64,000 nucleotides of DNA, taken from contig NZ_CP036250.1 of the NCBI RefSeq assembly GCF_004300825.1, positions 2,660,001 through 2,724,000 of the forward strand, written 5' to 3'. The DNA is from Egicoccus halophilus (GTDB lineage: Bacteria; Actinomycetota; Nitriliruptoria; Nitriliruptorales; Nitriliruptoraceae). Of this stretch, positions 52,516 through 62,878 are shown piece by piece. The translations under genes and the position numbers were made by a program. The notes below the pieces were generated by a model that saw nothing but the letters and a program-made list of their open reading frames with translations, had not been told where the DNA came from and searched no databases. Numbering within the stretch: position 1 is the first letter of the stretch; each line of letters starts with the position of its first letter.

Positions 52516-53277
52516 GTGACCGGCACGGCGACGCCCGGCAGTGGTACGACGACCAAGTACCGCTCGGCGCACGCCGAGCTGCTCGAGCGACTCGAGCAAC
52601 TCGGTGTCGGCGACGCACTGCCGGCCGAGCGCACGCTCGCCGCCGACCTCGGCGTGTCGCGGATGACGTTGCGGCGTGCCGTCGACGAACTGGTCCGTGA
52701 GGGTCGCCTGGTGCGCCGCCAGGGCGCCGGCACCTTCGTCGCCGCCCCCAAGATCGCCGCGTCACTGCACGTGAGCTCCTTCTCGGAGGACATGCGCCGG
52801 CGCGGCCACGTCCCCCACAGTCGGACCGTCGCCTTCGAGGAGATGTTCGCCGGGCCGCAGCTCGGTCGCCGGCTCGACGTCTCCCCCGGCGCCCGCGTGC
52901 TGCGGGTCGAACGCCTCCGCCTCGCCGACGAGGCCCCGATGGCGATCGAGACCCTGCACGTCCCGACCGACCTCGTGCCGGGACTCTCCGGCGAGGACCT
53001 CGTCGACGCCTCCTTCTACGAACTGCTCTCGACCCGTCACGGCATCGTGCTCGCCCGCGGCCTGCAGGAGATCGAGCCGACCGTCACCGACGAGCGCGAG
53101 TCCGCGCTGCTCGAGGTGCCGCTGCACTCCCCCGCCTTCCTGTTCGAACGCACCTCCTGGGACGGGCAGGGGCGCACCGTCGAGTTCGTGCGCAGCGTCT
53201 ACCGCGGGGACCGTTACCGGCTGACCGCCGAACTGCGTCCCGACGGCGCGGCGCCGGGGCCCGGCGGTGCGGCGTGA
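52516..53277 (+). CDS. GntR/HutC-family regulator (DasR/NagR-like)
   Basis: A 253-residue repressor, probably sensing a phosphorylated amino sugar such as GlcN-6-P or GlcNAc-6-P. The N-terminal winged helix has LPAERTLAADLGVSRMTLRRAVDELVREGRLVRRQGAGTFV (about residues 33-75); the C-terminal UTRA domain has LRVERLRLADEAPMAIETLHVP and later VEFVRSVYRGDRYRL. GTG at 52516 follows GCGAGGCA. It heads the operon, and its stop overlaps the start of the kinase gene (GTGA). Control of its own operon through the two upstream sites is inference. Confidence 0.9.
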   Translation: MTGTATPGSGTTTKYRSAHAELLERLEQLGVGDALPAERTLAADLGVSRMTLRRAVDELVREGRLVRRQGAGTFVAAPKIAASLHVSSFSEDMRRRGHVPHSRTVAFEEMFAGPQLGRRLDVSPGARVLRVERLRLADEAPMAIETLHVPTDLVPGLSGEDLVDASFYELLSTRHGIVLARGLQEIEPTVTDERESALLEVPLHSPAFLFERTSWDGQGRTVEFVRSVYRGDRYRLTAELRPDGAAPGPGGAA

Positions 53278-54302
53278 ACGTCCTCGCCGCCGACGTCGGT
53301 CGCACGACCTGCCGCCTCGCCCGCTTCGAGGGCGAGGGCCGCACCGTGTCCACCGAGGTTCCCAGCGGCGCCTCGCTCGCCGACCCCGAGGGCGTGGAGC
53401 GCATCACCGCGGCGTTGGAGGCGGCCGCCGCACGACTGCCGGCGGCACCCCGACCCGACACGGTCGTCGTCGGCACGACCGGCCTGGCCCAGGCCCCCAC
53501 CGCCGCGCAGCGACTCGCCGACGCCCTCGCCCGGCGCCACACGGGTGCCGAGGTGGTGCTCGCCTCGGACGTGCTGACCGCCCACCTCGGCGCGCTGGCC
53601 GGTCACGGCGGGGTGTGCCTGATCGCCGGGACGGGCGCGGTCGCGCTGGCCGTCGACGCCGACACCGACGCGCGCCTCGTGGACGGGCACGGCTACCTGC
53701 TCGGCGACGCCGGCTCCGGGTTCGCGGTCGGCCGCGCCGGCCTGGCGGCCGCGTTGCGCTCCGCCGACGGACGCCCCGGTGGGTCGCAGGTGCTGGCCGT
53801 GGCCGCGACCGAACGCTTCGGCCCGCTGGCGCAGCTGCCCGGGCGCGTGCAGTCCGACCCGGACGCCGTCCGCCTCGTCGCCGGCTTCAGCGTGCCCGTG
53901 GCCGACGCCGCGCGGGCGGGGGACGTCGTCGCGGGCAGGATCTGGGCGGACGCGGTCACCGCGCTCGCCGACACCACCGTCGCCGCCTGTCACGCGCTGG
54001 ACCCGAGCGGGACCCGCACCGTGCCGGTCGGCCTGGCGGGCAGTCTGCTGCGACTCGACGACCTCGTGACCGCGCCGCTGGTGGCGCTCGTCACGGCGGC
54101 GTGCCCCCGGGCACGCCTCGAGCGCGCCCGGGGGGACGCGCTCGACGGGGCCCGGCATCTGGCCGGTCCCCTCCCGGGACTCGATCCGGACCGCCTCCGG
54201 GCGGACGGTCTGCTCCTCCGCTCCCCGCGGAGGGACGTCCCCGCACACGTGGCCGTGGCGGGGACCAGGAGAGGGAACACCAGCTCGAGGAGGCTTGGAT
54301 GA
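53274..54302 (+). CDS. BadF/BadG/BcrA/BcrD-type amino-sugar kinase (N-acetylglucosamine/MurNAc kinase-like)
   Basis: A 342-residue kinase of the ASKHA fold. It has the phosphate-1 loop AADVGRTTCRLARF, VVGTTGLAQ, LIAGTGAVALAV and GDAGSGFAVGRAGL, as in GlcNAc kinase and MurK-type enzymes. In this operon it should phosphorylate imported GlcNAc (or MurNAc) to the 6-phosphate. Start overlaps the regulator stop and its own stop overlaps the next ATG (ATGA). The C-terminal 30 residues are Arg-rich and poorly conserved. Confidence 0.82.
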   Translation: MNVLAADVGRTTCRLARFEGEGRTVSTEVPSGASLADPEGVERITAALEAAAARLPAAPRPDTVVVGTTGLAQAPTAAQRLADALARRHTGAEVVLASDVLTAHLGALAGHGGVCLIAGTGAVALAVDADTDARLVDGHGYLLGDAGSGFAVGRAGLAAALRSADGRPGGSQVLAVAATERFGPLAQLPGRVQSDPDAVRLVAGFSVPVADAARAGDVVAGRIWADAVTALADTTVAACHALDPSGTRTVPVGLAGSLLRLDDLVTAPLVALVTAACPRARLERARGDALDGARHLAGPLPGLDPDRLRADGLLLRSPRRDVPAHVAVAGTRRGNTSSRRLG

Positions 54303-55591
54303 GGACCCGTACCTGGCTGGCCGGCACGGCCGCCATGGCCCTGCTCGTGACCGCCTGCGGCGGTGACGGCGACGGCGACGGCGCCACCGGTGGGGACGAG
54401 ACCGCGGAGGGGGCGGCCGCCGACGGAAGCCCGCAGTCCCTGCGCGTGTGGATCATGGAACCCGGCAACGACGAGGTCGAACGCATCGTGCGCGACGCGG
54501 CGGAGGCGTTCGAGGGCGAGAACGACGGGGTGACCGTCGAGCTCGAATTCGTCCCGTGGGCCAGCGCCCACGACCAGTTCGTCACCGCCATCGGTGGTGG
54601 GCAGGTGCCCGACGTCGCCGAGATGGGAACCACCTGGACCGCCGAGTTCGCCCAGCTCGGGCTCGCACCGGTCGAGACCGACGCCGACGCGGACTACATC
54701 GACAGCCTCGTCGAAGCGGGGACCGTCGAAGGCACCAGCTACGGCTACCCGTGGTACGCCGGCGCCCGTGGCCTGATCTACCGGACCGACGTGTTCGAGG
54801 ACCTCGGGCTCGAGGTGCCCGAGACCTGGGACGAGCTGCTCGAGGTCGGCGGGACCATCGAGGCCGAGACCGACCTGGCGCCGATCCACGTGGCCGGCAA
54901 CTACAACCACATGCTGTTGCCGATGGTGTGGCAGGCCGGCGGCGAGATCGCCACCGAGGAGGGCGAGGGCTGGGACGCCACCCTCGACAGCCCCGAGGGC
55001 CGCGAGGCGTTCGGGTTCTACGCCGACCTGTGGGAACGCGGCTGGACGCCTGAGGGCGGTGTCAGCTGGAACTCCGTCGACGTACGCACCGCCTTCGCAA
55101 ACGAGGAGTCGGCCATGATGGTCGGCGGCGGCTGGGACCTGTCGGGCATCCTCGGCGACAACCCGGACCTCGAGGGCCGCGTCGGCACGGCGCTGCTGCC
55201 CGAGGGCCCCGGCGGCTCGCGTGACACCTTCGCCGGCGGCAGCCACCTGGTCGTCTTCGAGGAGGCGGAGAACCAGCAGCTCGCGGTCGAGTTCATCGAG
55301 TTCATGTTGCAGGACGAGCAGGTCTCGACCTTCGCCGAGGCGGTCGGGTTCCTGCCCGGCACGGAGTCGGGTGTGGCGGCGTCGGAGGCGGCGCAGGACC
55401 CGCTCTACGAGGCCTTCACCACCCAGCTGGTCGAGCACTCGCGCAGCTACCCCGCCAGCCCGAACTGGGGCACGGTCGAGGGGGACGCGATCTTCGTCAA
55501 CGCCATGCAGCAGGTCATGACCGGTGACCTGACCGTCGACGAGGCCGTCGAGCAGGCCGACCAGCAGCTCGACGACACGCTCAACCGCTGA
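54299..55591 (+). CDS. Sugar ABC transporter substrate-binding lipoprotein
   Basis: Extracytoplasmic receptor of the CUT1 (MalE/UgpB) type, 430 residues. The lipoprotein signal MRTRTWLAGTAAMALLVTAC has its Cys at residue 20, followed by a Gly/Asp/Glu/Ala-rich linker. Mature blocks are LRVWIMEPGNDEVERIVRDAAEAF, GTTWTAEFAQLGLAPV and YGYPWYAGARGLIYRTDVFEDLGLEVPETWDELL. ATG at 54299 follows GAGGAGG. The operon context suggests GlcNAc, chitobiose or a muropeptide sugar as ligand. No ATPase gene is in the cluster, so a shared MsiK-type ATPase is probably used. Confidence 0.93.
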   Translation: MRTRTWLAGTAAMALLVTACGGDGDGDGATGGDETAEGAAADGSPQSLRVWIMEPGNDEVERIVRDAAEAFEGENDGVTVELEFVPWASAHDQFVTAIGGGQVPDVAEMGTTWTAEFAQLGLAPVETDADADYIDSLVEAGTVEGTSYGYPWYAGARGLIYRTDVFEDLGLEVPETWDELLEVGGTIEAETDLAPIHVAGNYNHMLLPMVWQAGGEIATEEGEGWDATLDSPEGREAFGFYADLWERGWTPEGGVSWNSVDVRTAFANEESAMMVGGGWDLSGILGDNPDLEGRVGTALLPEGPGGSRDTFAGGSHLVVFEEAENQQLAVEFIEFMLQDEQVSTFAEAVGFLPGTESGVAASEAAQDPLYEAFTTQLVEHSRSYPASPNWGTVEGDAIFVNAMQQVMTGDLTVDEAVEQADQQLDDTLNR

Positions 55592-56634
55592 TGTCCACCT
55601 CGCCGGACACCGTCGGGCAGCGTCGCGGCGACTCCGCCGCGGCGCCGTCCGGCGCGGCGCGCACCGGGTCCGGTGGCGGCGCGCTCACCGGGCCGCCGAC
55701 GCGTCGTCGGCGGCCCCGTGGCCCGCGGCTGGCCCGCCTGCAGCGGACCTTCGACCGCAGGCTGCTCCCGCCGCTGCTGCTGGCACCGGCCCTGCTGATC
55801 ATCTTCGGGCTGGTCGGCTACCCGGTGCTGCGCACCTTCTGGCTGTCGTTCCACGACGCCGGGCTGGCCGCGATGGTCAGCGGCGAGATGGCGTTCGTCG
55901 GGATCGACAACTACGTCACCATCGTGACCGACGCCCACTACCGCCGGGTGTTCCTGGTCACGGCCGTGTTCGGTCTCGCCTGCGTGATCGGCACGATGGT
56001 GCTCGGTGTCGGCGTCGCGCTGCTGCTCAACCGCCCGTTCCGCGGGCGCATCCTGCTCGGCGTGCTGGTCCTGCTGCCCTGGGCGATGCCGCGGGTGGCG
56101 GCCGCCACGATCTGGCAGTGGATGTTCCACGACCAGTACGGGGTGGTGAACTGGCTGCTGACGACGCTCGGGATGACGCAGTTCGAGGGCTTCGCCTGGT
56201 TCATCTCGCCCCTGCGCGCCTTCGTCGCCATCGGCGTGGTCGTCGTGTGGCAGTCGTTCCCGTTCGTGGCGCTGTCGATCCTCGCCGCGCTGCAGTCGAT
56301 CCCGACCGACGTGGTCGAGGCCGCGCGACTCGACGGCGCGACCGCGACCCAACGCCTGCGCCACATCACCCTGCCGATGATCAAGCCCGTGCTGGTGGTC
56401 ATGGTCATCATCTCGACGATCTGGAACTTCAAGGTCTTCGACCAGGTCTTCATCATGACCGAGGGTGGTCCGGCCCGGTCCACCGAGGTGCTGTCGATCG
56501 CGACCTGGCGGGAGGCGTTCACGCGCCTGGACTTCGGGCTCGCGTCGGCGTTGGCGATCGCGATGTTCCTGATCCTGACCCTCGTGACCGTCGTCTACGT
56601 CCGCGCGATCCGCGACGACGAGGAGCTGCGCTGA
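55591..56634 (+). CDS. Sugar ABC transporter permease 1 (CUT1, MalF-like)
   Basis: A 347-residue membrane subunit with six helices after a basic Arg/Pro-rich N-terminal segment (about 1-55). The EAA loop is VVEAARLDGATATQRLRHITLPMIKPV. Start and preceding stop overlap (TGATG). It pairs with the second permease. Confidence 0.94.
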   Translation: MSTSPDTVGQRRGDSAAAPSGAARTGSGGGALTGPPTRRRRPRGPRLARLQRTFDRRLLPPLLLAPALLIIFGLVGYPVLRTFWLSFHDAGLAAMVSGEMAFVGIDNYVTIVTDAHYRRVFLVTAVFGLACVIGTMVLGVGVALLLNRPFRGRILLGVLVLLPWAMPRVAAATIWQWMFHDQYGVVNWLLTTLGMTQFEGFAWFISPLRAFVAIGVVVVWQSFPFVALSILAALQSIPTDVVEAARLDGATATQRLRHITLPMIKPVLVVMVIISTIWNFKVFDQVFIMTEGGPARSTEVLSIATWREAFTRLDFGLASALAIAMFLILTLVTVVYVRAIRDDEELR

Positions 56635-57521
56635 TGACCGCCACGTCGAGCGCGACACCCGCCACCCGGCAGCCCGTGAACCTGCGTCGCTCGCGCGCCA
56701 GGCGCCGCGCGGGACGGTTCGGGACCTACCTCGTCGCCGTGCTGATCGGACTGTTCAGCGTCTTCCCGCTGTTCTGGATGCTGCTGACCTCCGTCAAGCC
56801 GCGGACGGAGATCGTCACGCGGGACCCGGTGTTCTGGCCCAGCTCGTTCGCGTGGGATCGCTACGGCGACGTGCTCGCGCGGGGCTTCACGACCTACCTC
56901 GCCAACTCGCTGTTCATCGCCGTCACGGTGACCCTCATCGGGGTGCTGGTGGCAGCGCTGGCCGGCTACGCGCTGGCGCGCTTCGACCTGCCGCTCAAGC
57001 GCTACCTGTTGCTGGTGGTGCTGGCCACCCAGATGTTCCCGGTCGTCGTGCTGCTCATCCCCTTCTTCGCCGTGATGCGCCGACTCGACCTGCTCGACAG
57101 CTACACCGGCCTGATCGTCACCTACATGAGCTTCTCGATCCCGCTCGCGATCTGGATCCTGCGCGGCTTCTTCCGCGGCATCCCCGACGAGCTCGAGGAC
57201 GCGGCGCTCGTCGACGGCTGCACCCGCTTCGGCGCGATGTGGCGCATCGTGCTCCCGCTCGCCGGACCGGGCATCGCCGCGTGCGCGATCTACGTGTTCA
57301 TCGCGGCGTGGAACGAGTTCCTGTTCGCGCTGACCTTCACCAGCTCCGACGCGATGCGCACGCTGCCGGTCGCGCTGCAGGCCTTCATCGGCCGCGACGC
57401 CACCGACCACGGCGCCATCATGGCGGCCAGCACGCTGTTCACGCTGCCGGTCGTCGTCTTCTTCCTGTTCGTCCACCGGCGGCTCACCGAGGGCATGGCC
57501 AACGGCGCCATCAAGGGCTGA
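56634..57521 (+). CDS. Sugar ABC transporter permease 2 (CUT1, MalG-like)
   Basis: A 295-residue six-helix permease. The EAA motif is ELEDAALVDGCTRFGAMWRIVLPLAGPGIAA, and the C-terminal RRLTEGMANGAIKG is typical of MalG-type subunits. Start overlaps the first permease stop (TGATG). It is followed after 74 bases by the TIM-barrel gene. Confidence 0.95.
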   Translation: MTATSSATPATRQPVNLRRSRARRRAGRFGTYLVAVLIGLFSVFPLFWMLLTSVKPRTEIVTRDPVFWPSSFAWDRYGDVLARGFTTYLANSLFIAVTVTLIGVLVAALAGYALARFDLPLKRYLLLVVLATQMFPVVVLLIPFFAVMRRLDLLDSYTGLIVTYMSFSIPLAIWILRGFFRGIPDELEDAALVDGCTRFGAMWRIVLPLAGPGIAACAIYVFIAAWNEFLFALTFTSSDAMRTLPVALQAFIGRDATDHGAIMAASTLFTLPVVVFFLFVHRRLTEGMANGAIKG

Positions 57522-57595
57522 GGTCCGGCGCCGCCGCCCACCATCCACCGCGAACGGACGGACCTCCGCCGCCCGCGCTCGAGAAAGGCAGTCCC

Positions 57596-58600
57596 ATCGC
57601 CATCGGGGTCTCGTACTTCGGCAACCGCATCCTGCGCCACGTCCGCGCCGACATGGAGGACCTCGTCGCGCGCGGCTTCACCGGGGTGCTGCACACCTTC
57701 AGCGAGAACGACTACAACTGGTACCGCCGCCAGATGGAGCGCATCGTGGCGGTCTCGCACGAGCTCGGCCTCGAGGTCCAGGTCGGCCCGTGGGGGCTCG
57801 CCCACGCCTTCGGCGGGGAGGCCGAGTCGCTGTTCATGACCCAGCACCCCCACCTCGGCCAGCAGTTCGCCGACGGTCGACGCATCGGTGCCGGCTGCCC
57901 GAGCCAGCCCGAGTTCCGCGCGTTCGTCAAGCAGTGGGCCCAGGCCGCGGTCGACCTCGGCGCCGACCGGGTGTTCTGGGACGAGCCGCACTGGGCCCAC
58001 CCGGTGCGCTTCCACCCGCAGCCCGACTCCGCCGACGCCTGGACGTGTGTCTGCGAGGCGTGCACGACCGCGTTCCGCGACCGCTTCGGCGCCGAGATGC
58101 CGCACGAGCTGACCGAGGAGGTCCGGTCCTTCCGTGAGGACGTGCTGACCGACTTCGTACGCGAGCTGGTCGCCCACGTCGACGCGATCGGCGGCCGCTC
58201 GACGGTGTGCCTGCTGCCCTCGGTCGACGGGCTGCACGCGGTGGACAGCTGGGAGCCGGTCGCGAGCGCCCCCGGGCTCGACACGCTCGCGACCGACCCG
58301 TACTGGAGCTTCTTCGGCCTGGACGTGCAGGAGTTCGTCGGTGGCCAGGCGCGCCGCACGGCCGAGCTGGCGCAGGCGCACCAGCTCACCCCGCAGATCT
58401 GGATCCAGGGCTTCAAGCTCGGACCCGACGACGAGGCCGACATCCACGCGGCCGTGCAGGCCGCCCGCGACGCCGGCGTCGAGGACCTGTGGACCTGGGG
58501 TTACGAGGCCTGCGGCCACATGACCCACCTCGACACGCGTGAACCCGAGCGGGTGTGGGAGATCCTGACCGAGGCGCTCACGGGAGGCGGTCGTGGCTGA
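57596..58600 (+). CDS. Putative glycoside hydrolase-like TIM-barrel protein with unusual start
   Basis: A protein of about 334 residues I cannot assign to a named family. Eight beta-strands of a TIM barrel are readable: GVSYFGNR, GVLHTFSEND, EVQVGPWGL, RVFWDEPHW, STVCLLPS, TLATDPYWSFF, QIWIQGFKL and DLWTWGYEA. The FWDEPHW block and the CVCEACTTAF motif (CxCxxC) resemble unclassified glycoside-hydrolase-like families. It lacks a signal peptide, so it is probably cytoplasmic and acts on imported disaccharide. No ATG, GTG or TTG precedes the first strand in frame; ATC at 57596 lies 7 bases after GAGAAAGG and is my best start. The next ATG (57653 region) would delete the first strand. Confidence 0.75.
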   Translation: MAIGVSYFGNRILRHVRADMEDLVARGFTGVLHTFSENDYNWYRRQMERIVAVSHELGLEVQVGPWGLAHAFGGEAESLFMTQHPHLGQQFADGRRIGAGCPSQPEFRAFVKQWAQAAVDLGADRVFWDEPHWAHPVRFHPQPDSADAWTCVCEACTTAFRDRFGAEMPHELTEEVRSFREDVLTDFVRELVAHVDAIGGRSTVCLLPSVDGLHAVDSWEPVASAPGLDTLATDPYWSFFGLDVQEFVGGQARRTAELAQAHQLTPQIWIQGFKLGPDDEADIHAAVQAARDAGVEDLWTWGYEACGHMTHLDTREPERVWEILTEALTGGGRG

Positions 58601-59498
58601 CCGCCTCACCCTCGACCACCTCGCCACCGAGGGGCGGCTGCCCGCCGCTCGCGACCTCGACCTGCGGACCACGGCCGAGCAGGTGGCGTTGTTCGCCGCC
58701 CAGGACGCACGCGCCGTCGCCGCCGTGGCGGCCGCCGGGAACGCGATCGCCGCCGCGGTCGACCTCGCGGTGGCGCGCATGCGCCGTGGCGGACGGCTCG
58801 TCTACGTCGGTGCGGGCACCCCCGGGCGGCTCGCGGTCACCGATGCCGCCGAGTGCCGGCCGACGTTCGGCCTGCCCGACGGGCGTGTCGTCGCGGTGAT
58901 GGCCGGCGGCGACGACGCGATGTCGCGCGCGGCCGAGCGTGGCGAGGACGACGCCGAGGCCGCTCGGCGTGACCTCGGCGCCGTCGCGCCGGGACCGGAC
59001 GACGTCGTGGTGGGCATCTCCGCGTCCGGGCGCACGCCGTACGTGCTCGCCGCCCTCGCCGCTGCCCGGGCGGCCGGGGCCGCCACCGTCGCGGTCGTGA
59101 ACAACCCCGGCTCGGTGATCGCGGAGGCGGCCGACGTGGCGGTCGTCGCCGATACCGGTCCGGAGATCGTGGCCGGCTCGACCCGACTCAAGGCCGGCAC
59201 GGCCCAGAAGCTGGTCCTCAACACGCTCTCGACGCTCACCATGGTCCAGCTCGGGCGCACGTACGGTGACCTGATGGTCGACGTGCAGGCCACCAACGCC
59301 AAGCTGGTGGCACGTGCCCGCGGCATCGTCGTCGCCGCGACCGGCGTCGACGACGACACCGCCGAGTCCGCGCTCGTTGCCGCCGACGGGCGGGCCAAGG
59401 TCGCCATCGTGGCCCTGCTCGCCGGGGTGGACGCCGACGAGGCCGCCCGCCGGCTCGCCGCGGCCGACGGGCACGTGCGCGCCGCCGCGGGGTCGTGA
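58593..59498 (+). CDS. murQ: N-acetylmuramic acid 6-phosphate etherase
   Basis: Cleaves the lactyl ether of MurNAc-6-P to give GlcNAc-6-P and D-lactate. The 301-residue SIS-fold protein has RGGRLVYVGAGTPGRLAV, the catalytic Glu block DAAECRPTFG, GEDDAEAA with the second acidic residue, GISASGRTPYVL, and KAGTAQKLVLNTLSTLTMVQLG. The usual GTSGR loop reads GTPGR, a substitution worth noting. GTG at 58593 overlaps the preceding gene end. It links the kinase products to NagA. Confidence 0.93.
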   Translation: MADRLTLDHLATEGRLPAARDLDLRTTAEQVALFAAQDARAVAAVAAAGNAIAAAVDLAVARMRRGGRLVYVGAGTPGRLAVTDAAECRPTFGLPDGRVVAVMAGGDDAMSRAAERGEDDAEAARRDLGAVAPGPDDVVVGISASGRTPYVLAALAAARAAGAATVAVVNNPGSVIAEAADVAVVADTGPEIVAGSTRLKAGTAQKLVLNTLSTLTMVQLGRTYGDLMVDVQATNAKLVARARGIVVAATGVDDDTAESALVAADGRAKVAIVALLAGVDADEAARRLAAADGHVRAAAGS

Positions 59499-60709
59499 TG
59501 CGGGTCGTGGGGATGATGTCGGGCACGTCGGTCGATGGCGTGGACGTCGCCGTGGTGGACGTCGACGCGGTCGACGGCGGCGAGCGCCTGGTGCTGCGAC
59601 GCGTGGCCGAGGCGACCGTGCCGTTCGACCCGGCCCTGCGACAGCGGGTGCTCGACGTCCTTCCGGGGAGCACGGCGGCACACCGCCCGGACGTCGGTGA
59701 GCTGTGCCGGCTCGATGCCGACCTCGGCCGCGCGTTGGCTGCCGCGGCCCGCCAGGCGGTGACCGAGTTGGCCGACGGCGCCGCCGACCTGCTCGTCAGT
59801 CACGGACAGAGCGTCCACCACGAGGTGGTCGACGGCCGGGTGCTCGCCACCCTGCAACTCGGCCAGCCGGCGGAGATCGCCGAGGCGACCGGACTGCCGG
59901 TCGTCAGCGACCTGCGCACCCGCGACGTCGCAGCCGGTGGTCAGGGGGCGCCGCTGGTGAGCCTGCTCGACCAGCTCGTGCTGGCCGACACCACGGCGCC
60001 GGTCGCCGCCCTGAACCTCGGTGGCATCGCCAACCTGACGGTGGTCGCACCGGACCGTCCGACCGTCGCGTTCGACGCCGGTCCCGCCAACGCCCTGCTC
60101 GACGCCGCGGTACGGACCGCGACCGACGGCCGCGAGCACCACGACCCGGGTGGCCGACGCACCGCCGTGGGCCGGGTCGACGAGGCGCTGCTCGCGGTGC
60201 TGCTCGACGACCCGTTCCTGGCCGCGCCGGCCCCGAAGTCGACCGGCAAGGAGCGCTACCACGCCGGCTACCTCGACCGGGCCCTGGCGGCCGCGCCCGT
60301 CGACCGGCTCGAGGACCGCCTGGCCACCCTGGCGGAAGCCGTGGCCGTGGCGGTGGCCGACCACGCCGCCCGCCACGCCGTCCGGCGCGTCGTCGGCAGC
60401 GGCGGCGGGGTCCACAACGCCGGGCTGGTCGCCGCGCTCCGACGCCGCCTGGCCGCCATGGGTGCCACCTGGGACACCTCCGACACGCTCGGCCTGCCGG
60501 TCGACGGCAAGGAGGCGATCGCCTTCGCGCTGCTGGGCTGGCTCAGCTGGCACGGACTGCCGGGCACGGTCGCGTCCTGCACCGGTGCCGCGGGCCCGCG
60601 GGTCCTGGGTTCACTCACCCCCGGCGCCGATCCGCTGCGGCTGCCGGCGTCACCGGCGGCCGCCCCCCGCTCCGCCACGGTCCTCGGGCCCGTGGCGTCC
60701 CCGAAGTGA
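59498..60709 (+). CDS. anmK: 1,6-anhydro-N-acetylmuramic acid kinase
   Basis: Phosphorylates anhydroMurNAc released by lytic transglycosylases, giving MurNAc-6-P for MurQ. The 403-residue protein has the phosphate loop GMMSGTSVDGVDVAVVDVD, LLVSHGQSVHH, VSDLRTRDVAAGGQGAPLVSLLDQLV with the catalytic Asp, NLGGIANLTV, FDAGPANALLDA and GSGGGVHN. ATG at 59498 overlaps the murQ stop (TGATG); a GTG one codon earlier is possible. AnmK is unusual in actinobacterial sugar operons. Confidence 0.95.
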   Translation: MRVVGMMSGTSVDGVDVAVVDVDAVDGGERLVLRRVAEATVPFDPALRQRVLDVLPGSTAAHRPDVGELCRLDADLGRALAAAARQAVTELADGAADLLVSHGQSVHHEVVDGRVLATLQLGQPAEIAEATGLPVVSDLRTRDVAAGGQGAPLVSLLDQLVLADTTAPVAALNLGGIANLTVVAPDRPTVAFDAGPANALLDAAVRTATDGREHHDPGGRRTAVGRVDEALLAVLLDDPFLAAPAPKSTGKERYHAGYLDRALAAAPVDRLEDRLATLAEAVAVAVADHAARHAVRRVVGSGGGVHNAGLVAALRRRLAAMGATWDTSDTLGLPVDGKEAIAFALLGWLSWHGLPGTVASCTGAAGPRVLGSLTPGADPLRLPASPAAAPRSATVLGPVASPK

Positions 60710-60728
60710 AGACCCGGAGGTCCCAGCC

Positions 60729-61841
60729 ATGCGACTCGGTGTGGACGCGGTCGTCGACGGTGGTGTCCGTCGGCCCGGTGACGTCGAGGTGGTCGACGAC
60801 CGGGTGGTCGCGGTCGGTCTGTCACCGGCCGGCACGGGCCTGATCGCCGCGCGCGGTTACGTCGACCTCCAGGTCAACGGCTTCGCCGGCGTCGACCTGC
60901 TCGCCGCCGATGAGGACGCGGTGCGCGCCGCGGCGCGGGCGCAGGCCGCCACCGGGGTGCAGGCCTGGCAGCCCACGCTCATCACCGCCGACGAGACCGA
61001 CACGCGCCGGGCGCTGCGGACCCTGACCGCGGTGGCCGCCGAGGGCGGCACCGCCGGCCGTGGCGGTGGCATCCTCGGGGTCCACCTCGAGGGACCCTTC
61101 CTGTCCTCCGAGAAGCTCGGCACCCACCCGGCCGAACACCGGCGGGACCCGGATCCCGCCCGGCTCGACCGCCTGCTCGCGGCCGGACCGGTGACCTACG
61201 TGACGCTGGCCCCGGAGCTGCCCGGCGCGCTGGACCTGGTCCGGATGCTGGTGGCACGCGGCATCGTCGTCTCGCTCGGCCACAGCGCCGCCGACGCCGC
61301 CGCCGCCCATGCGGGCTTCGACGCCGGCGCCCGGACGGTGACGCACCTGTTCAACGCGATGACGCCGTTCACCCCGCGGCGCCCCGGCCTGGCCGGGGCC
61401 GCACTCTCGCGCGACGACGTCGTCGTGCAGGTGATCGTCGACGGTCATCATCTCGCCCCCGAGACCGTGCGGCTCGCGTTCCTGGCGGCACGTGGCCGGG
61501 TCGCGCTGGTGACCGACGCGATCGCCGCCGCCGGCCGCGGTGACGGGACCTACCGCCTCGGCGACGTCGAGGTGACCGTCGCCGACGACGCCGTCCGTCG
61601 CGCCGACGGCACGCTGGCCGGCAGCGCGCTGACCATGCCGGAGGCCGTCGCCAACACGGTCGCGCTCGGCGTCCCGCTGCCCGAGGCGGTCGCGGCCGCC
61701 ACCGTCGTCCCGGCCACGCTGGTCGGGCGTCCCGAGTTGGCGGCGCTGCGGCCGGGCGCACCGGCCGATCTCGTGGTGCTCGACGACGCCGGTCGCCTGC
61801 ACCGCACGCTGGCTGCCGGGCAGGAACCGAGCGCCGCATGA
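60729..61841 (+). CDS. nagA: N-acetylglucosamine-6-phosphate deacetylase
   Basis: Removes acetate from GlcNAc-6-P. The 370-residue amidohydrolase has the early GYVDLQVNGFAGVD, GVHLEGPFLSSEKLGTHP with the metal Glu, VSLGHSAADAAAAHAGFDAGARTVTHLFNAM (metal His residues), and the catalytic Asp in VALVTDAIAAAG. ATG at 60729 follows CGGAGG. Its stop overlaps the start of the SIS gene (ATGA). Confidence 0.95.
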   Translation: MRLGVDAVVDGGVRRPGDVEVVDDRVVAVGLSPAGTGLIAARGYVDLQVNGFAGVDLLAADEDAVRAAARAQAATGVQAWQPTLITADETDTRRALRTLTAVAAEGGTAGRGGGILGVHLEGPFLSSEKLGTHPAEHRRDPDPARLDRLLAAGPVTYVTLAPELPGALDLVRMLVARGIVVSLGHSAADAAAAHAGFDAGARTVTHLFNAMTPFTPRRPGLAGAALSRDDVVVQVIVDGHHLAPETVRLAFLAARGRVALVTDAIAAAGRGDGTYRLGDVEVTVADDAVRRADGTLAGSALTMPEAVANTVALGVPLPEAVAAATVVPATLVGRPELAALRPGAPADLVVLDDAGRLHRTLAAGQEPSAA

Positions 61842-62878
61842 GCCGACTGCACGCCGAGACCGCCGAGCAGCCCGCCGCCGTCGCCCGCCTGCTGGAGCGG
61901 GTCGTGCCGAACCTGTCGACGTTGCGCCGGGAGCTCTGGCGCGACGACGTGTCCAGCATCGTGCTGGTCGCCCGCGGCTCCTCGGACAACGCCGCCCGCT
62001 ATGCCCAGTACCTGTTCGGGATCGAGCATCGGCTGCCGGTCGCCCTGGCCACGCCGTCGCTCGGCTCGATCTACGGCGTCGAGCCGGACTTCCGGCAGGC
62101 GCTCGTGGTGGCCGTGTCGCAGTCGGGTCAGTCCCCCGACGTCGTCGGCGTCCTCGACGCGGCCCGCCGCCAGGGCCGGCCGGCGCTGGCCATCACCAAC
62201 GATCCCGACAGTCCGCTCGCCGACGCGGCCACCTGCGTGCTCGAGCTCGGTGCCGGACCCGAACGGTCGGTGGCGGCCACCAAGACCTACACCACCTCGC
62301 TGACGGCACTCGCGCTCGTCGCGGTCGCCGGCCTCGACACCGGACGCCGCCGGGAACGACTCGCCGATCTCGGGCTGCTCCCCGACGTGCTGGAGACGGT
62401 GCTCGGCCTCGACACCGGGGCGGCGGCCGCCGGACTGAGCGAGGTCGAGCACCTGCTGGTGGCCGGTCGGGGGCTCAACTACGCGACCGCGTTCGAGGCC
62501 GCGCTCAAGATCCGCGAGCTCAGTGGCGTGGTCGCCGAGGCCTTCTCCCCGCCCGACCTGCTGCACGGACCGATCGGCGCGGTGTCGTCGGGGGCGGCCG
62601 CGCTGCTCATCGCCCCCAGCGAGCCGAGCCTGGCCGGGGTCGCCGCGCTCGCCGCGCCGCTGCGCGAGCGCGGCGCGCGGCTGGCGGTGCTCAGCGCGGA
62701 CGCCTCGCTGCTGGCGGTCGCGGACGTGCCGTTGCGGCTGCCACGCGAACCTGCCGACTGGCTCACGCCCGTGACCACCATCGTGCCCGCGCAGCGTCTC
62801 GCCTCCGCGCTGGCGGCCGACCGCGGCCGTGACCTCGACGCGCCCGAGGGCCTGACGAAGGTCACCCGCACCAGGTGA
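61838..62878 (+). CDS. SIS-domain sugar-phosphate isomerase/deaminase (NagB-II/GlmS-like)
   Basis: A 346-residue protein with two SIS domains, like the isomerase half of GlmS but lacking the glutaminase domain: VARGSSDNAARYAQYLFG, VSQSGQSPDVVGVLDAAR, AATKTYTTSLTALAL, and ALKIRELSGVVAEAFSPPDLLHGPIGAV. Such proteins are glucosamine-6-phosphate deaminases of type II. It would complete breakdown to fructose-6-phosphate and ammonia. Start overlaps the nagA stop. It is the last gene of the run before an 82-base gap. Confidence 0.9.
   Translation: MSRLHAETAEQPAAVARLLERVVPNLSTLRRELWRDDVSSIVLVARGSSDNAARYAQYLFGIEHRLPVALATPSLGSIYGVEPDFRQALVVAVSQSGQSPDVVGVLDAARRQGRPALAITNDPDSPLADAATCVLELGAGPERSVAATKTYTTSLTALALVAVAGLDTGRRRERLADLGLLPDVLETVLGLDTGAAAAGLSEVEHLLVAGRGLNYATAFEAALKIRELSGVVAEAFSPPDLLHGPIGAVSSGAAALLIAPSEPSLAGVAALAAPLRERGARLAVLSADASLLAVADVPLRLPREPADWLTPVTTIVPAQRLASALAADRGRDLDAPEGLTKVTRTR

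What the first reader, a model, noticed from the sequence alone, without database searches (positions are those of the whole stretch)
57596..58600. Orphan TIM-barrel protein, candidate new glycosidase family, in the amino sugar operon
All eight strands of a TIM barrel can be read, with an acidic FWDEPHW strand and a CxCxxC motif, but I cannot match a named family. It sits between the importer and MurQ. Inferred role: cytoplasmic hydrolysis of GlcNAc-(anhydro)MurNAc or a similar disaccharide, the step otherwise missing here.
Basis: partly seen in the sequence, partly recalled or inferred. Interest (0 to 1): 0.65.

Follow-up and report, generated by a model that had tools for sequence, protein, structure and literature searches.

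The report
Unnamed sugar-cutting enzyme family, amino-sugar operons
The gene encodes a member of an unnamed enzyme family with the barrel shape of sugar-cutting enzymes, and bacteria and salt-loving archaea keep it next to genes for eating cell-wall sugars or chitin, so it is probably the internal enzyme that splits imported N-acetylglucosamine disaccharides, although no activity has been measured.

Summary
Window 57596-58600 (+) is a real gene ('X', 334 aa), predicted to be a complete (beta/alpha)8 barrel (pLDDT 92.9). No Pfam, NCBIfam or PDB sequence family claims it. It belongs to an unnamed family in Actinomycetota, haloarchaea and scattered other phyla, with 27 invariant positions, including W128-D129-E130-P131 at the end of strand 4, E37/D39, and four Cys in the GH42-type zinc pattern. 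Profiles make it a distant relative of GHL6/DUF4015 barrels. The strand-7 nucleophile of clan GH-A is absent; an Asp-Glu pair is what substrate-assisted N-acetylhexosaminidases use.

Context supports amino sugars: 36 of 38 actinobacterial loci have MurQ, AnmK, NagA or a GlmS-type isomerase nearby; 20 of 29 haloarchaeal loci have chitinases, PIG-L deacetylase, a DgaE-like lyase or AnmK/NagZ/NamZ. This genome has no GH20, NagZ-motif GH3 or NamZ.

Best reading: cytoplasmic exo-beta-N-acetylglucosaminidase for imported GlcNAc disaccharides, a new glycosidase family. Cautions: NagZ co-occurs in 7 of 11 X-bearing related genomes, so X is not simply its substitute; one haloarchaeal subclade lacks amino-sugar neighbours. 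Activity, substrate and catalytic residues are inferred. Translation appears to start at a conserved ATC codon.

The parts
57596..58600 (+). Gene X: unnamed (beta/alpha)8-barrel, glycosidase-like protein, 334 aa, cytoplasmic (no signal peptide; strand 1 begins at residue 3)
57596..57598 (+). Probable ATC start codon, GAGAAAGG 7 nt upstream; ATC also in G003 and L001, ATG/GTG/TTG at the same codon in eight other relatives
57704..57712 (+). E37-N38-D39 after beta-2: invariant acids E37 and D39, possible sugar-binding or base residues
57977..57988 (+). W128-D129-E130-P131 at the end of beta-4: proposed catalytic Asp-Glu pair
   Evidence: Invariant; role inferred
57896..58063 (+). C101 and C151/C153/C156: proposed structural zinc site of the GH42 type
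   Evidence: Invariant; GH42 pattern in PMC8573354; zinc inferred
52516..53277 (+). GntR-UTRA regulator
   Evidence: Pfam
53274..54302 (+). BadF-type sugar kinase, weakly like NagK
54299..55591 (+). ABC importer sugar-binding lipoprotein
   Evidence: Pfam SBP_bac_1
55591..56634 (+). ABC importer permease A
   Evidence: Pfam
56634..57521 (+). ABC importer permease B
   Evidence: Position and homology to importer permeases in related loci; the Pfam scan was made in the wrong frame and gave nothing
58593..59498 (+). MurQ, MurNAc-6-phosphate etherase
   Evidence: TIGR00274 over cut-off
59495..60709 (+). AnmK, anhydro-MurNAc kinase
   Evidence: NF007146 over cut-off; Pfam
60702..61841 (+). NagA, GlcNAc-6-phosphate deacetylase (exact start not settled)
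   Evidence: TIGR00221 over cut-off
61838..62878 (+). SIS sugar isomerase, NagB-II/GlmS-like
   Evidence: below the curated cut-offs

Best explanation
X is a cytoplasmic exo-acting glycosidase, most likely a beta-N-acetylglucosaminidase, of a family not yet named. It would split GlcNAc from small imported oligosaccharides: GlcNAc-(anhydro)MurNAc or GlcNAc-MurNAc in this actinobacterial operon, diacetylchitobiose in chitin-eating haloarchaea. The products would feed the adjacent enzymes: sugar kinase, AnmK, MurQ, NagA and SIS isomerase here; PIG-L deacetylase, glucose dehydrogenase and DgaE-like ammonia lyase in haloarchaea. Proposed mechanism: E130 is the general acid/base, D129 positions the substrate's 2-acetamido group as internal nucleophile (as in GH20 and GH123), and the invariant Trp/Tyr residues line the sugar pocket; the four Cys hold a structural zinc. 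Shown: fold (high-confidence prediction), conservation, gene context, absence of GH20, NagZ motif and NamZ in this genome. Inferred: hydrolysis, substrate, catalytic residues, zinc.
For: Barrel and invariant residues clustered at its catalytic mouth, 15 of 27, p 5e-5. Invariant D129-E130 at the end of beta-4 and no invariant acid on beta-7; this Asp-Glu arrangement gives substrate-assisted catalysis in GH123 and related families (PMC11087588). Kinship to GHL6/DUF4015. Context: MurQ in 29 of 38 and any amino-sugar gene in 36 of 38 actinobacterial loci; X with AnmK, p 6e-7 over 61 genomes; haloarchaeal loci with GH18 chitinases, PIG-L, DgaE-like lyase. Own genome lacks GH20, NamZ and NagZ-motif GH3; 17 of 19 X-bearing haloarchaea lack GH20.
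Against: NagZ-motif GH3 co-occurs in 7 of 11 X-bearing related genomes, sometimes in the same cluster. Nine haloarchaeal loci, most in one derived clade, have no amino-sugar genes nearby. X does not match GH20 or GH42 by profile. In haloarchaea the PIG-L partner could deacetylate the substrate first, which would remove the internal nucleophile. No activity known for any member; pocket geometry could not be measured.
Confidence: 0.5

Rival explanations
1. X is a glycosidase of amino-sugar pathways but cuts a different bond (for example a MurNAc-linked, uronic-acid-linked or otherwise substituted disaccharide), while NagZ/GH3 does the GlcNAc step where present.
For: NagZ-motif GH3 in the same cluster or genome in 7 of 11 cases; the haloarchaeal subclade with sulfatase, OtnK-like kinase and aldolase.
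Against: Chitinase and PIG-L/DgaE clusters in haloarchaea point to plain GlcNAc units; this genome has no NagZ motif at all.
Confidence: 0.2
2. X is an exo-beta-glucosaminidase acting after PIG-L deacetylation, as GlmA follows Dac in Thermococcus.
For: PIG-L overlaps X in Natronorubrum and lies near X in many haloarchaea; GlmA is a GH35/GH42-like barrel paired with a deacetylase (PMC6566704).
Against: GlmA needs a beta-7 nucleophile (E347), and X has no invariant acid there. No PIG-L was found in the actinobacterial operons with the probes used.
Confidence: 0.1
3. X is a glycoside phosphorylase for GlcNAc disaccharides, using one general acid and phosphate, like GH112.
For: GH112 phosphorylases among the fold neighbours of the haloarchaeal model; only one clear catalytic acid cluster.
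Against: Adjacent enzymes use free amino sugars or 6-phosphates (NagA, MurQ, PIG-L), and no GlcNAc-1-phosphate enzyme was recognised nearby.
Confidence: 0.07
4. X is a sugar epimerase/isomerase of the AP_endonuc_2 / tagatose-3-epimerase kind.
For: Weak Pfam hit, E 0.001-0.005; epimerases among the fold neighbours.
Against: Those enzymes bind a metal through acids and His on late strands (general knowledge); X has no invariant His, and its invariant acids are D19, E37, D39, D129, E130. The Pfam match is below cut-off and covers residues 24-159 only.
Confidence: 0.06

Closest known systems
GHL6 (PF14871) and DUF4015 (PF13200) glycosidase-like barrels
   Same: Detectable profile kinship: L069 6e-9, L070 5e-8, L063 4e-8, L071 4e-5 by hhalign; shared beta-4 Asp, and in L069, L070 and L071 the CxCxxC
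   Different: X is below both Pfam cut-offs, lacks the extra domains of most of these proteins, and has E130 where the aligned DUF4015 protein has Tyr
GH42 beta-galactosidase (for example Gal42, PMC8573354)
   Same: Barrel; four-Cys pattern C...CxCxxC; beta-4 acid
   Different: GH42 has Asn-Glu on beta-4 and a Glu nucleophile on beta-7; X has Asp-Glu and no invariant beta-7 acid; no trimerisation domain
GH20 / GH123 N-acetylhexosaminidases
   Same: Asp-Glu pair at the end of beta-4, aromatic pocket, amino-sugar context; GH20 structures among the fold neighbours
   Different: No sequence kinship by profile (hhalign E 0.096 to a GH20 protein); single-domain X
NagZ (GH3)
   Same: Same proposed pathway step and location
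   Different: Different sequence family and motif; both occur together in 7 of 11 related genomes
GlmA exo-beta-glucosaminidase with Dac (Thermococcus)
   Same: GH35/GH42-like barrel paired with a PIG-L type deacetylase in archaeal chitin use (PMC6566704)
   Different: GlmA uses E179 and E347 on beta-4 and beta-7; X lacks the second

Membership tests
GH42 | Pfam PF02449 match over cut-off | tested here: not met
   Two of 42 members match weakly, best E 0.0016; the window protein does not
GH42 | Asn-Glu on beta-4 and Glu nucleophile on beta-7 | tested here: not met
   Asp-Glu on beta-4, no invariant acid on beta-7
GH42 | Four-Cys zinc site (not universal in GH42) | tested here: met
   Cys pattern met: C101, C151, C153, C156 invariant; zinc itself not testable
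GH20 | Sequence kinship to PF00728 | tested here: not met
   No Pfam GH20 match among 42 members; hhalign E 0.096
GH20 | Asp-Glu catalytic pair at the end of beta-4 | tested here: met
   D129-E130 invariant, beta-4 = 125-129
GHL6 (PF14871) | Match over the Pfam cut-off of 35 bits | tested here: not met
   Four of 42 members, best E 0.028
DUF4015 (PF13200) | Match over the Pfam cut-off | tested here: not met
   No match among 42 members, only distant profile kinship to DUF4015 proteins
NagZ (GH3) | KHFPGHGx4DSH motif and GH3 domain | tested here: not met
   No GH3 match; motif absent
AP_endonuc_2 / tagatose 3-epimerase | Metal-binding acids and His on late strands | tested here: not met
   No invariant His or late-strand acid
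beta-N-acetylglucosaminidase (by function) | Release of GlcNAc from a beta-linked substrate | not testable with these tools
   Needs an enzyme assay

The most novel reading that the evidence does not exclude
X founds a new glycoside hydrolase family in which a GHL6/DUF4015-type barrel without the beta-7 nucleophile gained a Glu next to the shared beta-4 Asp, giving a substrate-assisted N-acetylglucosaminidase independent of GH20, GH84 and GH123. It serves as intracellular chitobiase in haloarchaea and as muropeptide-disaccharide hydrolase in Actinomycetota.
Probability: 0.4. Interest if true: 0.65.

Novelty: new variant of a known kind. Interest (0 to 1): 0.52.

Why it matters
GlcNAc use by chitin-eating haloarchaea has been described as only partly understood (PMC12343721), and this genome has peptidoglycan-sugar enzymes without NagZ-motif GH3, NamZ or GH20. 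One conserved unnamed gene links both settings and suggests a short list of assays. If active, it would be a new glycosidase family with a probable independent origin of the Asp-Glu N-acetylhexosaminidase site, and it would give a name to many 'hypothetical proteins'.

Tried and rejected
Simple NagZ replacement: rejected as a general rule, because NagZ-motif GH3 is in 7 of 11 X-bearing related genomes. Retaining GH-A mechanism with a beta-7 nucleophile: rejected, no conserved acid there. Epimerase/isomerase: disfavoured, no metal ligands. Membership of GH20, GH42, GHL6 or DUF4015: below cut-offs. GHL10 neighbours (L074, L077, L149): no kinship to X by hhalign. PDB sequence search with a profile gave only chance hits. 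Single-sequence hhalign templates are a weak test; deeper profiles of GHL6 and DUF4015 were not built. Papers on haloarchaeal MurNAc use: none found. The Pfam scan of permease B was in the wrong frame. Neighbour genes of the most distant members (L035, L036, L038-L040, L042) gave no consistent picture.

Full report
WHAT IS THERE. The frame at 57596-58600 (+) encodes a 334-residue protein, X. It lies in a run of same-strand, often overlapping genes: GntR-UTRA regulator, BadF-type sugar kinase, ABC binding protein and two permeases, X, MurQ, AnmK, NagA and an SIS sugar isomerase. X ends inside the start of MurQ (8-nt overlap). No ATG, GTG or TTG occurs in frame in the 25 codons before residue 1; the codon there is ATC, with GAGAAAGG 7 bases upstream. 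The same ATC is present in a congener (G003, 90% identical) and in L001 (76%), while eight other relatives have ATG, GTG or TTG at exactly that codon. ATC is therefore very probably the start codon.

FAMILY. Pfam gives only AP_endonuc_2 at E 0.005, below its cut-off; NCBIfam nothing; PDB sequences nothing. A genome scan found 44 loci, and plasmid records 11 haloarchaeal ones annotated 'hypothetical protein'. Profile searches found X in 11 of 61 close relatives and in about 18 of 294 genomes of the haloarchaeal class. In 397 genomes of the phylum 16 matched, three of them only through distant GHL6-like proteins. X occurs once in its own genome. The distribution is patchy, as for an accessory catabolic gene. 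A tree of 41 members separates haloarchaeal, nitriliruptorian/acidimicrobial, thermoleophilial and other clades, and gene context follows the tree.

FOLD AND CONSERVED SITES. AlphaFold2 gives pLDDT 92.9 and, for a haloarchaeal member, 94.0. Both show a complete (beta/alpha)8 barrel. Twenty-seven positions are invariant in alignment A2. Because the first scan used peptide patterns that include VFWDEPHW, I checked 23 loci found by profile: all 26 sites examined were unchanged except one F273Y (at least two of these loci duplicate plasmid records seen before). Fifteen of the 27 invariants lie at the C-terminal mouth of the barrel and one in the opposite loops (p 5e-5). Invariant acids are D19 (helix 1), E37 and D39 (after beta-2), D129 and E130 (end of beta-4). 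Beta-7 has none, so the two-Glu retaining site of clan GH-A is absent. C101, C151, C153 and C156 are invariant; Gal42, a GH42 enzyme, has its zinc site at C113, C153, C155 and C158 (PMC8573354).

RELATIVES OUTSIDE THE FAMILY. Foldseek against the PDB puts a beta-amylase first in both runs, then GH35, GH42, GH164, GH5, GH20, epimerases and, for the haloarchaeal model, PgaB and a GH112 phosphorylase. TM-scores of about 0.4-0.7 with rmsd mostly 5-7 A establish only the general fold. X's profile hits DUF4015 proteins L063 and L064 (E 9e-5 and 7e-4) and GHL6 proteins L069 and L071. hhalign gives L069, L070 and L063 E 6e-9 to 5e-8 and L071 4e-5, against 0.015 for a GH42-like protein and 0.096 for a GH20 protein. 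In L063 the aligned stretch reads GVDDILWDYIRRP against GADRVFWDEPHW, so D129 looks like the shared Asp of the wider group and E130 like the family's own addition (inference from one alignment).

CONTEXT. Counted by hand (window included, duplicates removed), 29 of 38 actinobacterial-clade loci have MurQ in the fetched flank, and 36 of 38 have MurQ, AnmK, NagA or a GlmS/NagB-type SIS gene; L028 and L076 do not. Across 61 related genomes X and AnmK co-occur in 9, X alone in 2, AnmK alone in 3 (Fisher p 6e-7, not corrected for kinship). In haloarchaea 20 of 29 loci (hand count, some possibly the same species) have amino-sugar or chitin genes: GH18 chitinases over the Pfam cut-off (L174, L176, L177, L178, L144), PIG-L deacetylase, a DgaE-related lyase (E 5e-60, below cut-off), glucose dehydrogenase and Rid. 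In Natronorubrum the PIG-L gene overlaps X, and NamZ, a NagZ-motif GH3 and AnmK follow. Nine loci, most of them in one derived clade, sit instead with sulfatase, OtnK-like kinase, aldolase or Gfo/Idh genes. A published account of Natrarchaeobius chitin clusters lists chitinases, ABC importers, CE14 deacetylase, glucose dehydrogenase and the ammonia lyase, and predicts only a partial pathway (PMC12343721).

THE MISSING STEP. In this genome there is no GH20, no NamZ, and the two GH3 proteins lack the NagZ motif. GH84, GH18 and GH109 were not searched. So X is the best candidate here for cleaving a GlcNAc disaccharide. But in 7 of 11 X-bearing related genomes a NagZ-motif GH3 is present, in some in the same cluster. 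X and NagZ therefore probably differ in substrate (for example chitobiose or GlcNAc-MurNAc against GlcNAc-anhMurNAc-peptides), or X has a further role. Seventeen of 19 X-bearing haloarchaea lack GH20.

MECHANISM. An adjacent Asp-Glu pair at the end of beta-4, with no second acid on beta-7, is the arrangement of enzymes in which the substrate's own 2-acetamido group attacks the anomeric carbon: in GH123 and related families the Asp stabilises the acetamido group and the Glu is the acid/base (PMC11087588). I propose this for X, with E37/D39 and the invariant aromatics (W66, W128, W219, Y236, W269, W301) as binding residues. This is inference from position and conservation. An inverting mechanism with E37 or D39 as base, or phosphorolysis, is not excluded.

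VERDICT. Observation confirmed. Interpretation partly supported: an unnamed glycosidase-like family tied to amino-sugar catabolism in two domains of life, with substrate and chemistry still to be shown.

Noticed in passing
window 57581-57598; L072; L001 6368: X appears to start with ATC, a rare start codon, conserved in three species (100, 90 and 76% identical proteins) with a ribosome-binding site; other relatives use ATG, GTG or TTG at the same codon. Gene finders limited to ATG/GTG/TTG would mis-start it.
   Followed up: partly
L149 (Natronorubrum halalkaliphilum), L175: Haloarchaeal clusters with NamZ, NagZ-motif GH3 and AnmK but no MurQ found within the fetched stretch: apparent use of bacterial cell-wall sugars by archaea, with an unknown fate of MurNAc-6-phosphate.
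   Followed up: partly
L074 10289-11527, L077 4704-6503, L149 15492-17087, L002: GHL10 glycosidase-like proteins recur next to X; no sequence kinship to X.
   Followed up: no
L046, L047, L050, L032: A haloarchaeal subclade of X lies with sulfatase, OtnK-like kinase, class II aldolase, Asp/Glu racemase-like protein and an Opp-type importer; the substrate of this cluster is unknown.
   Followed up: no
L070 1108-2112 (-): A 335-aa stand-alone barrel with CxCxxC and no Pfam match, distantly related to X: possibly another unnamed family.
   Followed up: no
L177, L178, L174: Proteins with chitin-binding and PKD domains but weak or no recognised GH18 domain lie among the chitinases, possibly the 'ambiguous chitinases' of PMC12343721.
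   Followed up: no
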